Assembly: GCA_947259685.1 (NCBI GenBank)
Contig: CAMYNC010000011.1
Location: forward strand, 1 to 39,779
Origin: an uncultured Desulfuromonadales bacterium
Lineage (GTDB): Bacteria; Desulfobacterota; Desulfuromonadia; Desulfuromonadales; Geopsychrobacteraceae
DNA length: 39,779 bases
Reading direction: 5' to 3'
A program made the translations under genes and the position numbers. Under the pieces are notes generated by a model that saw nothing but the letters and a program-made list of their open reading frames with translations, did not search any database and was not told where the DNA came from. Of the stretch, positions 3,079 to 8,945 are shown in pieces; the stretch's first letter is position 1, and every line of letters starts with the position of its first letter.

Positions 3079-3429
3079 TCAATTTACCGGTCGCACACTG
3101 ACGAGGACTTGAACCGAATGTTGATTGGTTGGTATTGGATAGTTCTGCATGGTTATATAGTCCCCAGAAGTTATTTCCCTGTTCCCACTGACATCGACAT
3201 GGACTGTAAGGCTATACCTTTCGCGTTCATCGAGCGCTGGGAATTTCATTGAAAAAGGGATAGGGCTCGGGCCTTCAGTTCTCATGGATATGCCATTTAA
3301 CGCCTTTTCAGCGACAATCTGCGATGGCGCATCAGCAAGGCTTACATTCTCAAGGCGAAGGTATATGGTGGCGTTCGAAAATGAGGAGGTAAGTTGTTCG
3401 AAAATTATTTTACCCTCAATAACTGACAA
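3079..3429 (-). CDS. YscW/YbaY-like small protein (PF09619-type), third gene of the astacin cluster
   Basis: This 116-residue protein resembles the YbaY/YscW family (PF09619), small beta-sandwich proteins usually found as periplasmic lipoproteins; YscW itself is a pilotin for type III secretion. Family-like features are an N-terminal IEGKIIFEQL strand, a central LENVSLADAPSQIVAEK segment, the IPFSMKF turn followed by ERYSLTVHVDV, and a C-terminal strand rich in Val. Unlike the usual members it has no signal peptide or lipobox. The start is a TTG (3427-3429) with AAAGG upstream; the frame stays open for 15 more codons upstream but shows no ATG or GTG. It follows the acidic repeat gene after 146 bp that contain a strong hairpin (3483-3516). 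Family assignment is by remembered pattern only, so moderate confidence. Confidence 0.6.
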   Translation of the reverse strand: MSVIEGKIIFEQLTSSFSNATIYLRLENVSLADAPSQIVAEKALNGISMRTEGPSPIPFSMKFPALDERERYSLTVHVDVSGNREITSGDYITMQNYPIPTNQHSVQVLVSVRPVN

Positions 3430-3482
3430 AATTGGCCGCCTTTCGATCCGAGTTGATCCCCTCTGTTTCGAAATTTAAGTGG

Positions 3483-3516
3483 GCCGTCTGCAGGTTATTC
3501 GCTGCCTGCAGACGGC
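3483..3516 (-). repeat. Strong 12-bp hairpin between the acidic-repeat gene and the YscW-like gene
   Basis: GCCGTCTGCAGG (3483-3494) and CCTGCAGACGGC (3505-3516) are perfect inverted repeats with a 10-nt loop. On the minus strand the hairpin is 59 bases after the acidic-repeat stop codon and 53 bases before the TTG start of the next gene. No T-run follows on the minus strand, so an mRNA-stabilising or attenuating intercistronic structure is more likely than a full terminator. Confidence 0.6.
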
Positions 3517-3575
3517 AACTGGGGACAACATTTAGTATATTTTAGCTTAGTTTTCCAGGCCTGTCCTACTGTCCC

Positions 3576-3983
3576 TTAAGCTTGATCTGGAGTTTCCAAG
3601 CCATCGCCCTCAAGCTCCTCCACCAGGGCATCAGGAGGACTGCCGACATCCAAGGGTTTCTCCTCTGAGCCTTCCTCAGCATATGGGGTTTCGACAGGGA
3701 CCTCTTCCAATTCCTCAACAAGCGACTCTGGCGGTCCGCCTGCGCTCATCGCTACCTCGGCAGGCGTTTCAGCTAGCTCAAGATCCTCGCAGCTGCAACT
3801 GCCCATCTCAATTTCCTCCATGAGCGAGGCCGGAACAGCTCCGCCATCAAGGTGTTCCTCCGCATTCCCCTCTGCTAGGTTGGGGACTTCAAGGAATCCT
3901 TCTTCTATCTCCTCGACGAGAACCGTCGGTGGGCCTCCCGTGTCGAGGTACGTTTGTCTCTCCTGCTGTTTGTCTTCAGCCAT
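3576..3983 (-). CDS. Very acidic protein with four copies of a G-x-P-P-x-x-L-V-E-E-L/I-E motif
   Basis: This 135-residue protein is extremely rich in Glu and has no recognised domain, signal peptide or membrane segment. It consists of four degenerate units with the core G-[GSA]-[PV]-P-x-x-L-[VM]-E-E-[IL]-E, cores near residues 16-27, 48-59, 82-93 and 114-125; three of the units end in a VP or TP step about five residues after the core. The second copy is the most divergent and holds the only cysteines, a CSC pair at 63-65. The start is supported by AAGGAG lying directly after the astacin stop codon, 15 bp upstream, so the two genes are almost certainly co-translated. I infer a partner role (inhibitor, substrate or multi-unit peptide precursor) from position alone. 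I recognise no known family. Confidence 0.75.
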   Translation of the reverse strand: MAEDKQQERQTYLDTGGPPTVLVEEIEEGFLEVPNLAEGNAEEHLDGGAVPASLMEEIEMGSCSCEDLELAETPAEVAMSAGGPPESLVEELEEVPVETPYAEEGSEEKPLDVGSPPDALVEELEGDGLETPDQA

Positions 3984-3998
3984 TTCTACATTCTCCTT

Positions 3999-5111
3999 TT
4001 AACGCAACCAGCCTCTGACATGATAACGTGCCTCGACGCTGACATTGTAATTTACGAGGTTTTTCACGCAGATGAAATACTTGATGTATTTATCGGACTG
4101 CCTGGTGGCCTTTATCGTCCACTCGATTTGTGGTCCAGCATCACGCGGAGGGCTCAAAGGGGCCACGACCCAGTCCACGTGCCAGTGCGCCGGCCAGCTA
4201 TGGGTAAACCAACACTGAGTTGCGCCGGCCCTGACGGTGCCCTTGAACTGAACACCCAGCCAGGTGCGTGAGGGTTCGCAGTTGGGGTACATAGCCCGGA
4301 CAGCAGCGATATCCCCAGCGCTGAGGCCGCTTCTTTGGCCGATGGTTGCGCCGCTTTGCAAGGGGACGATGGTCGGTTGACCGTTGCGAGAAAAGGCGTG
4401 TGTACCGTAGTGCATGATCGATCTGTAATCATACCGGCCATAATCATCGCCGTCGGTGATGTGCTGATTGAAATTGCTTACCGCACTTGGAGTGATATTT
4501 TGATAATTGATCCTGACGAAACTGTTCCGGTCCTCCCGACTTTGTTCGTGCCAAAGCCCCACAGCATGACCGATTTCGTGGATTGTGCTGCCGGTACCAC
4601 AACCAGCGGCCAAACCGAGGTCTTGCTTGCCGCCCCGCATGCCCACGTATGACCAGCAGCCATTCGATGGCTTGAAGTTCACATAATTGGGATAACTGCT
4701 CGCGTTACCGCTGGTTCGCCGCACGAACCGGAGGCGGGTCTTCTGTTGCCAATGGGCAATGGCGTCAGTAACCCGACGCTGATTGGGGAGGCTTGGGTCG
4801 ATGGTGTATGGTATGAGGCAGCGAGGCCAACGATAACGTTGGCCGGTAATACCAACCCCGAATTCAACACCCTCGGGAATCTCTCCAGAATCCGCAGCGG
4901 CTTGATCGGCTTCTTTTAGTATCATATCGGCGAGTTGGTCCATCTCTTCAGCGGTACCTAAAACGATGTCACCCTCGAAAACGGCAAGGCCATCAACGAC
5001 TGCATACTCGATCGGTTTGGAACCAAAATTAATGCCAGTGATGAAACCTTTCTTAATTATTTCACTTCCCAACATCTCTTCCTTACACATTTTTTGTTGA
5101 TCATCATTCAT
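3999..5111 (-). CDS. Pro-astacin zinc metalloprotease (M12A) with FxGDI latency motif
   Basis: This is a 370-residue astacin-family endopeptidase. The catalytic signature HEIGHAVGLWHEQ gives zinc ligands H178, H182 and H188 and general base E179; the Met-turn SIMHY supplies M233 and the astacin-specific Tyr235. Cysteines 98/278 and 152/171 match the two disulfides of the astacin fold. The N-terminal ~85 residues are a propeptide carrying FEGDI (45-49), the FxGDI aspartate-switch of animal pro-astacins in which the Asp caps the zinc. A further ~90-residue C-terminal beta-rich domain of unknown function follows C278. No signal peptide is visible, odd for a disulfide-containing protease. The ATG is preceded by AGGGG with good spacing. 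It heads a three-gene minus-strand operon with the acidic-repeat and YscW-like genes. Confidence 0.93.
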   Translation of the reverse strand: MNDDQQKMCKEEMLGSEIIKKGFITGINFGSKPIEYAVVDGLAVFEGDIVLGTAEEMDQLADMILKEADQAAADSGEIPEGVEFGVGITGQRYRWPRCLIPYTIDPSLPNQRRVTDAIAHWQQKTRLRFVRRTSGNASSYPNYVNFKPSNGCWSYVGMRGGKQDLGLAAGCGTGSTIHEIGHAVGLWHEQSREDRNSFVRINYQNITPSAVSNFNQHITDGDDYGRYDYRSIMHYGTHAFSRNGQPTIVPLQSGATIGQRSGLSAGDIAAVRAMYPNCEPSRTWLGVQFKGTVRAGATQCWFTHSWPAHWHVDWVVAPLSPPRDAGPQIEWTIKATRQSDKYIKYFICVKNLVNYNVSVEARYHVRGWLR

Positions 5112-8663: not shown

Positions 8664-8774
8664 ATCGAATAAATGGTAACGGGTTTTTTTATCCAGGTTC
8701 AAGCGGCTCTGACCACGGACTCTTTACTCTGTTTGCTTGCGGGGACATTGAGAATGCCAGCTGGATTATCACCT

Positions 8775-8814
8775 TTGTAGAATATTCGCTGATTTGTTGT
8801 AGAATATTCTACAA
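8775..8814. promoter_or_regulatory. Tandem operator-like sites upstream of the Cus operon
   Basis: TTGTAGAATATTCTACAA at 8797-8814 is a perfect 18-bp palindrome. Exactly 22 bp upstream, 8775-8787 repeats its first 13 bases (TTGTAGAATATTC). Two matching sites two helical turns apart suggest cooperative binding of a dimeric regulator. They lie about 130-170 bp upstream of the start of the first Cus gene, and about 100-120 bp before the start point predicted from the partial sigma54-like element at 8875, the usual distance for an enhancer-binding activator. The regulator gene is not in the window. Confidence 0.7.
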
Positions 8815-8874
8815 TTTGTGCGCCTAGGCATGTCGAAAATAGAGAAATGTTTCATAAAATAAGGCATTTATCTT

Positions 8875-8891
8875 TTGGCACAGAAGCTGAT
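8875..8891 (+). promoter_or_regulatory. Partial sigma54-type promoter for the Cus operon
   Basis: TTGGCAC (8875-8881) is a full match to the -24 element. At the correct distance the -12 element reads CTGAT where TTGCA/T is expected, so it keeps only T, G and the final W. The match is incomplete but its location downstream of paired palindromes supports it. No better sigma70 promoter was seen for this operon. Confidence 0.35.
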
Positions 8892-8945
8892 AATAAAAGA
8901 TGGCATGAATCATTGTCATCTTAATTGCTACAGGAGTTTAGCGGG

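What the first reader, a model, noticed from the sequence alone, without database searches (positions are those of the whole stretch)
3079..5111. Three-gene pro-astacin cluster: protease, acidic repeat protein, YscW-like protein
A zinc protease gene, a tightly coupled four-repeat acidic protein and a pilotin/chaperone-like protein form one minus-strand unit. None has a recognisable Sec signal, yet the protease has the four cysteines of the disulfide-bonded astacin fold. This suggests either an unrecognised export route or an intracellular regulated protease with a dedicated inhibitor or substrate. I know of no described system with this composition.
Basis: partly seen in the sequence, partly recalled or inferred. 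Interest (0 to 1): 0.75.

Follow-up and report, generated by a model that had tools for sequence, protein, structure and literature searches.

The report
Leaderless protease cassette with repeat partner
Three neighbouring genes make a dormant protein-cutting enzyme without an export signal and two small partner proteins, and the same cassette recurs in distantly related bacteria, with one half of it serving a different enzyme in an archaeon, so it looks like a conserved and largely undescribed way of handling such enzymes.

Summary
In detail: an astacin zymogen (3999-5111, -), a four-repeat acidic protein (3576-3983, -) and a YscW-like protein (3079-3429, -). The same order recurs in other phyla. 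The interpretation needs changing. (1) YscW follows the leaderless (no signal peptide) astacin, whatever domain ends it: beside 32 of 37 relatives, beside 0 of 5 with a leader. None of the 32 has the lipobox common in free-standing relatives. (2) The acidic protein follows the astacin's C-terminal domain (CTD, no Pfam family), not its protease: a DxGxxP-type partner lies downstream of 20 of 20 evaluable CTD astacins; similar partners lie beside a CTD subtilase (Haloferax) and, motif looser, a CTD beta-propeller. A dedicated astacin inhibitor or substrate is therefore unlikely. (3) Covarying cysteine pairs suggest work in an oxidising place. Best model: YscW is a cytosolic guard or chaperone of the zymogen; the acidic protein is a multivalent adaptor for CTDs; export route unknown. 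YscW beside peptidases in ATP-grasp 'branch 7' loci is in print (Makarova 2022), so novelty is partial; I found no description of the CTD/DxGxxP module. In seven relatives with an ATP-grasp neighbour, probably such loci, the astacin's own tail looks like the missing graspetide precursor.

The parts
3999..5111 (-). leaderless astacin (M12A, LegP-like) zymogen, 370 aa, ATG at 5111; in-frame TGA two codons upstream
4968..4979 (-). FEGD aspartate-switch motif of the prosegment (residues 45-48)
   Evidence: last position D in 111, C in 29, G in 2 of 142 rows; role of the motif from PMC9848320 passages
4269..4856 (-). astacin catalytic domain, residues about 86-281, HEIGHAVGLWHE, C152/C171 pair, extra pair C98/C278
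4002..4256 (-). CTD, residues 286-370: beta domain without Pfam family, shared with subtilases and BNR propellers elsewhere; C300/C348 pair
3576..3983 (-). acidic four-repeat protein, 135 aa, 29% D+E (DxGxxP kind)
3900..3944 (-). repeat 1, DTGGPPTVLVEEIEE
3807..3848 (-). repeat 2, DGGAVPASLMEEIE
3702..3746 (-). repeat 3, SAGGPPESLVEELEE (no leading D)
3609..3650 (-). repeat 4, DVGSPPDALVEELE
3483..3516 (-). perfect 12-bp hairpin between acidic and YscW-like genes, no T run
   Evidence: coordinates counted by hand
3079..3429 (-). YscW-like protein, 116 aa, TTG start, pilotin fold, no signal peptide or lipobox

Best explanation
A leaderless-protease cassette built of two separable modules. Module A is the latent astacin plus the YscW-like protein. 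The enzyme is made in the cytoplasm without a signal peptide as an FEGD zymogen. The YscW-like protein, a pilotin-fold protein without a lipobox, is its dedicated cytosolic partner and keeps it inactive or export-competent. Module B is the CTD plus the DxGxxP repeat protein (plus, in many genomes but not here, free CTD copies). The CTD is a lectin-like or fibre-tip-like docking domain fused to swappable enzymes. The acidic protein is a flexible multivalent adaptor whose repeats bind CTDs and perhaps, by their PxxLxxEI helices, the YscW groove. The enzyme acts after release into an oxidising place. SHOWN: gene content, conservation, what tracks with what, missing signals, covarying cysteines, pilotin fold of the model. 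INFERRED: all binding, guarding, clustering, the CTD's role, the oxidising place and release. UNKNOWN: export route and substrate.
Against: No physical interaction was tested. Only two non-astacin CTD loci could be read; the G067 partner has no strict DxGxxP motif, and neither has a YscW match nearby. L003 and its genome have none, nor does the genome of L008. A Thermus brockianus astacin without a leader at its annotated start has no YscW neighbour. The leader-bearing astacins are also distant in sequence, so leader and kinship are confounded. The longest ORF of one of the 32 YscW neighbours (L029) begins with a hydrophobic stretch. Many of the 37 loci are near relatives (Lentzea, Streptomyces). 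Motifs were defined after looking, and the partner ORF was picked in the gap by GxxP count. The window lacks the free CTD copy seen in 18 of 20 evaluable loci. Pilotins that I know of (recalled) are lipidated outer-membrane proteins, yet Streptomyces, without such a membrane, carries this gene.
Confidence: 0.4

Rival explanations
1. Toxin-immunity pair like protealysin-emfourin: the YscW-like protein is a tight active-site inhibitor protecting the producer, the protease is delivered to neighbouring cells, and the acidic protein is a stabiliser.
For: Protease without leader next to a small partner gene; intracellular protealysin with its operon-encoded inhibitor emfourin is a working precedent (PMC9505478, passages). 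YscW follows the astacin part, not the CTD.
Against: No inhibitor family matched (Pfam); the zymogen already carries its own FEGD latency motif; contact-dependent delivery genes were not looked for; no PADLOC match for the three window proteins.
Confidence: 0.25
2. One reading: the acidic repeat protein is a dedicated inhibitor or substrate of the astacin.
For: Immediate coupling (15 nt); acidic residues suit some astacin subsites (recalled).
Against: Similar partners accompany a CTD subtilase and, with looser motif, a CTD propeller; two-motif ORFs lie near 1 of 15 astacins without CTD against 15 of 22 with it.
Confidence: 0.1
3. Peptide natural-product locus: the acidic protein is a repeat precursor of a modified peptide, the protease its maturation enzyme, as may hold in ATP-grasp branch 7 relatives.
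For: Seven of 37 relatives have an ATP-grasp ligase next door; of two scanned, one is above and one below the cut-off of the MvdD pre-ATP-grasp family. One locus holds a microviridin-type precursor (L026).
Against: No ligase match in the 22 CTD loci as far as held or in the window; the repeats carry few of the Thr/Ser/Lys partners that graspetide rings need (inspection; chemistry recalled).
Confidence: 0.12
4. The YscW-like protein is an export pilot: it leads the enzyme to a non-Sec exporter, with the repeat protein as docking tag.
For: Pilotin fold; leaderless enzymes with covarying cysteine pairs must leave the cytoplasm if those pairs form disulfides.
Against: No lipobox; no shared exporter found; the one marker tested, the eCIS core domain, is over cut-off in 9 of 24 genomes and absent from 15.
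Confidence: 0.13

Closest known systems
LegP family (NCBIfam NF045530) of astacins
   Same: catalytic domain and prosegment; 326.5 bits against a cut-off of 300
   Different: The Legionella adelaidensis copy has a hydrophobic leader and no YscW match in the 6.7 kb held; L. pneumophila LegP is reported as T2SS- and T4SS-dependent (PMC6617341 passages). The window protein has no leader, an added CTD and two partner genes.
ATP-grasp 'branch 7' graspetide loci (Makarova et al. 2022, PMC8939145)
   Same: peptidases plus a YscW homologue without other T3SS parts
   Different: no ATP-grasp match in the window or in the 22 CTD loci as held; a separate DxGxxP repeat protein instead
Protealysin-emfourin operon
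   Same: a metalloprotease kept in the cell, with a small partner gene in the operon (PMC9505478 passages)
   Different: protealysin is M4 (recalled), not M12A; the window partner matches YscW only; a third gene and the CTD are extra
T2SS/T3SS pilotins, AspS-type 5wec and 2yjl
   Different: no signal peptide or lipobox; secretin genes not looked for
Crayfish and limulus pro-astacin (3lq0, 8a28)
   Different: no signal peptide, C42 missing, C98/C278 pair instead, a CTD of its own

Membership tests
Astacin M12A | HExxHxxGxxHE site and astacin domain | tested here: met
Astacin M12A | prosegment latency motif FxGD | tested here: met
   FEGD at residues 45-48
Astacin M12A | N-terminal signal peptide (architecture stated for animal astacins in PMC9848320) | tested here: not met
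   in-frame stop two codons upstream of ATG, polar N-terminus
Astacin M12A | canonical cysteine pairs C42-C198 and C64-C84 | tested here: inconclusive
   C64-C84 equivalents present; C42 replaced by R, C98/C278 covary instead
LegP effector (NF045530) | score above the equivalog cut-off | tested here: met
   326.5 against 300
LegP effector (NF045530) | translocated Dot/Icm substrate | not testable with these tools
   no genome is held for the window
YscW/pilotin (PF09619) | domain and fold | tested here: met
YscW/pilotin (PF09619) | lipoprotein signal | tested here: not met
   none in the window copy
ATP-grasp branch 7 locus | ATP-grasp ligase in the locus | tested here: not met
   no match among the window ORFs with a profile grown from seven related loci
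ATP-grasp branch 7 locus | peptidase with YscW homologue | tested here: met
   feature
Protealysin-emfourin | M4 protease and emfourin inhibitor | tested here: not met
   Pfam gives M12A for the protease and YscW for the partner; no emfourin match
Protealysin-emfourin | partner inhibits the protease | not testable with these tools
   needs enzyme assays
H-type-lectin or fibre-tip fold for the CTD | fold of solved members | tested here: inconclusive
   weak Foldseek rows 4ru5 E 0.037, 6cl5 E 0.17, 3wmp E 0.19 for the whole model, aligned part not shown; the CTD was not folded alone

The most novel reading that the evidence does not exclude
A cross-domain deployment module for leaderless enzymes: an undescribed C-terminal docking domain (CTD) on swappable payloads (astacin, subtilase, beta-propeller), free CTD copies that co-assemble with the payload in an A-plus-B fashion, and a DxGxxP repeat adaptor that clusters them; leaderless astacins additionally recruit a YscW-derived cytosolic guard. 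The same leaderless astacin family, in ATP-grasp loci, carries its graspetide-type core in its own tail, which would solve the missing-precursor problem of branch 7.
Probability: 0.3. Interest if true: 0.82.

Novelty: new variant of a known kind. Interest (0 to 1): 0.62.

Why it matters
Leaderless enzymes with covarying cysteine pairs pose an open question: how they are kept silent and how they leave the cell. Here the partners can be assigned by comparison alone: YscW with the astacin core, the repeat protein with the CTD. That gives a short list of binding and inhibition tests. The CTD has no Pfam family and occurs on bacterial and archaeal enzymes, many now filed as hypothetical. A relative far from Legionella already bears the name of a Dot/Icm effector (P0098), probably over-extending that label.

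Tried and rejected
Rejected: chance neighbourhood (conservation). Acidic protein as astacin-specific inhibitor or substrate (CTD subtilase and propeller loci). Contractile injection (eCIS) as the general export route: eCIS core over cut-off in 9 of 24 genomes (7 with E of 1e-10 or below, 2 weak), absent from 15; no background rate was measured. Anti-phage defence: no PADLOC match for the three window proteins; a weak PDC-M32A hit to two of three free CTDs scanned (16.9 and 11.9 bits) was absent from the fused CTD proteins scanned and is read as chance (one paper listed, not read).

Led nowhere: CTD in phages and viral contigs, none; YscW in plasmids by the window query, none, although a divergent YbaY-named neighbour was found there through the astacin; astacin with contractile injection system in papers, none; YbaY family lipoprotein with metallopeptidase, none; YscW with astacin, none; astacin with ATP-grasp, one unrelated nematode paper; one search listed 20 of 216 papers, none of the 20 with YscW or YbaY. 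Random draws: LegP-like astacin in 0 of 397 other Pseudomonadota and in 1 (G091) of 395 other Actinomycetota, plus a CTD-only genome, G067; YscW in 2 of 148 other Actinomycetota, one of them G091, the other weak and with a lipobox, and in 11 of 149 other Pseudomonadota, weaker than the astacin-linked ones; CTD in 1 of 300 Burkholderiales drawn, centre included. The CTD fold stays unsettled: no CTD-only model was made, and the second-look list was filled by astacins. Taxonomic origin of the window was not determined.

Limits: the 37 loci contain near-copies; the DxGxxP pattern and the PxxLxxEI extension were written after seeing sequences; hydrophobicity scans stand in for a signal-peptide predictor and are not specific (a leaderless Pararhizobium protein reached 2.31 in its prosegment); the rows include the window twice and near copies; in A1 the L007 and L029 rows were entered without their first residues, so N-termini were read again from the longest ORFs; the tree has 29 rows, 4 of the 33 I listed (L013, L081, L082, L088) having dropped out of my motif cut, and 9 of 26 inner branches open. 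My notebook speaks of 13 YscW relatives away from astacins; recounting one search gives 14.

Full report
WHAT IS THERE. On the minus strand lie an astacin gene (3999-5111), 15 nt further a gene for an acidic protein (3576-3983), and 146 nt further a YscW-like gene with a TTG start (3079-3429). The astacin has a 370-residue product with FEGD prosegment, HEIGHAVGLWHE site and an 85-residue C-terminal beta domain (CTD). It passes the LegP equivalog cut-off of NCBIfam. An in-frame TGA two codons before the ATG (read) excludes a longer N-terminus. Between the second and third gene sits a perfect 12-bp hairpin, so the third gene may be separately controlled.

CONSERVATION. A scan of one genome per species gave 37 relatives of the astacin. 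A YscW-like gene lies within 3 kb in 32 of 37. Of the five without, L002, L008 and L032 end at a contig edge, L003 is a true miss, and L035 is a Legionellales protein with a leader (by eye). For L002 the missing genes were found at the end of another contig of the same genome: a DAGGPPPDL-type repeat protein followed by YscW. Searching 21 of these genomes whole, 19 have a YscW match; comparing coordinates, the best match is the copy beside the astacin in 18. Two genomes have a second, weak match with a lipobox; the genomes of L003 and L008 have none. Among 148 other Actinomycetota drawn, 2 have a match: G091, which also has a LegP-like astacin, both genes near contig ends, and a weak lipoprotein match. 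So two rare genes travel together. The closest locus, L001 (a MAG filed under Sulfurimonadaceae), has the window's trio in the same order; its acidic protein aligns with the window's over 127 columns, repeats in register (E 7e-12, single comparison). The Phycisphaerae one aligns at E 1e-5. A word-based search of 5.8 billion proteins gave one further homologue of the acidic protein, so sequence search alone would have missed the kinship.

TWO MODULES. The C-termini of the 37 astacins differ: 22 have the CTD; others have a LysM-like end (0.1 bit under the Pfam cut-off), ricin repeats or DUF346 repeats, a different small domain in two Halomonas (by eye), or, in 7, a long tail with an ATP-grasp ligase next door. 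YscW is beside nearly all of them. In contrast, the DxGxxP protein was found with the CTD: 20 of 20 CTD loci whose downstream sequence is held have a partner ORF with at least one such motif (L023 read). A uniform scan asking for two motifs in an ORF of 40-250 aa within 3 kb finds 15 of 22 CTD loci (two of the seven misses are contig ends, one has a single motif, four have the frame open far upstream so that the ORF exceeds 250 aa or starts elsewhere) and 1 of 15 others, a Halomonas. Among all ORFs of 60-250 aa in the loci then held, 31 of 2824 have two or more motifs, the partners included. In 18 of the 20 there is also a free-standing CTD of about 85 aa; the window, L001 and L003 lack it and have longer, more acidic partners. 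Halomonas repeats the design with its own domain: fused copy, free copy, a GPPP-repeat protein, YscW.

THE CTD WITHOUT THE ASTACIN. In genome G067 an 888-aa Sortilin/BNR-type propeller ends in a CTD and is followed by a free CTD and an acidic protein with GAAP and GGAP stretches but no strict DxGxxP. On the Haloferax mediterranei plasmid pHME505 a leaderless S8 subtilase ends in a CTD, followed by an annotated free CTD and an ORF (8269-8910 of L080) with DAG-AP repeats, of which only the last part is annotated. Neither stretch has a YscW match. A protein search with that CTD gave 218 proteins; of the 120 listed, 114 have S8, 4 BNR-type and 2 no Pfam domain. None of the 120 reaches 2.2 in a hydrophobicity scan of the first 50 residues. 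An independent hit, G940 in Burkholderiales, has astacin-CTD, repeat protein, free CTD and YscW in order. Hence I read the repeat protein as belonging with the CTD, YscW with the astacin core; the first part rests on two non-astacin loci.

LEADERLESS BUT RICH IN PAIRED CYSTEINES. Among 142 aligned rows (near copies included), C152/C171 are always both Cys. C300/C348 are both present in 29, both absent in 107, never alone. C98/C278 are both present in 17, absent in 118, with C98 alone in 6. Such covariation argues for disulfides and so for work outside the reducing cytoplasm. Of the 120 listed astacin homologues, the window's own included, none reaches 2.2 in the first 40 residues, while four leader-bearing astacins (L086, L088, L089, L081) score 2.28-2.57. 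Those four and L035 have no YscW neighbour; they are also distant kin, and L087 (Thermus brockianus), without a leader at its annotated start, has no YscW either, so the contrast is suggestive only. A leaderless Pararhizobium astacin does have one. The latency residue varies: Asp in 111, Cys in 29, Gly in 2.

MECHANISM. Likely order: zymogen and YscW-like protein are made together; YscW guards it; the repeat protein gathers several CTDs (four repeats here, free CTD copies elsewhere); after release the FEGD switch is removed and the enzyme acts while docked by its CTD to a surface. The CTD's replacement by ricin or LysM-like ends at the same position in relatives supports a binding role; whole-model matches to tail-fibre and lectin folds are weak and I only assume that they fall on the CTD. 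No export route was found; an eCIS marker is present in a minority of the genomes.

KNOWN OR NEW. YscW with peptidases was reported in branch 7 ATP-grasp loci, with no precursor found (PMC8939145; passages and one section part). That the seven ATP-grasp loci here belong to branch 7 is my inference from gene content. LegP has been described (PMC6617341; passages). A protease kept in the cell with an inhibitor gene in its operon exists in protealysin-emfourin (PMC9505478; passages). The graspetide paper PMC13097080 was seen in abstract and outline only. The paper searches for astacin with YscW, astacin with contractile injection system and YbaY family lipoprotein with metallopeptidase found nothing; the library is partial. 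The CTD (two free copies and three fused proteins scanned) and the window's repeat protein have no Pfam entry. The tree of the catalytic domain groups rows of different phyla with good support (an Acidobacteriota row with Gordonia, Sinosporangium and Sphingomonas, 100/98; Pyrinomonadaceae with Nitrosospira, 100/100), which fits horizontal spread. I therefore rate it a new variant of a known kind, with a possible new module inside.

Noticed in passing
L026 2608-4137, L027, L028, L029, L031, L033, L037 (astacin genes in ATP-grasp loci): The astacin's own C-terminal tail carries a PFAV-type motif in 7 of 7 ATP-grasp loci and 0 of 30 others and, by eye, Lys/Thr with Asp/Glu repeats (for example TLKFRDDP); a strict S/T-K-D/E pattern counts 10, 8, 0, 0, 2, 0, 1 in the seven, a looser one 4 to 10. 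It may be the precursor that PMC8939145 could not find for branch 7.
   Followed up: partly
L026 5606-5800 (-): A 64-aa microviridin-type precursor (PFFARFL leader, TLKYPSD core; naming recalled) lies beside the ATP-grasp and YscW genes.
   Followed up: no
window residue 48 of the astacin, alignment of 142 rows: The latency residue swaps between Asp (111) and Cys (29) at one position within this family, an aspartate switch and a possible cysteine switch side by side.
   Followed up: partly
L080 8269-8910 (Haloferax mediterranei pHME505): A 213-aa repeat protein ORF downstream of the free CTD gene is annotated only in its last part (8758-8910).
   Followed up: partly
L021/L079 and L024: Further peptidases without an evident leader sit next to YscW: an M6 protease in Halomonas and a VanY-like protein in a cyanobacterium.
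   Followed up: no
P0098 and NF045530: A Vicinamibacterales protein bears the name Dot/Icm effector LegP, presumably through the equivalog model; the window protein would too.
   Followed up: no
L077 8327-12738: Beside the CTD propeller of G067 lie an InlB-repeat protein, a metallo-beta-lactamase-fold protein and a patatin-like protein by eye.
   Followed up: no
L074 1825-2913 (-), G091: A second zincin-like protein (matrixin/astacin-type and PPC domains) precedes the astacin in G091.
   Followed up: no
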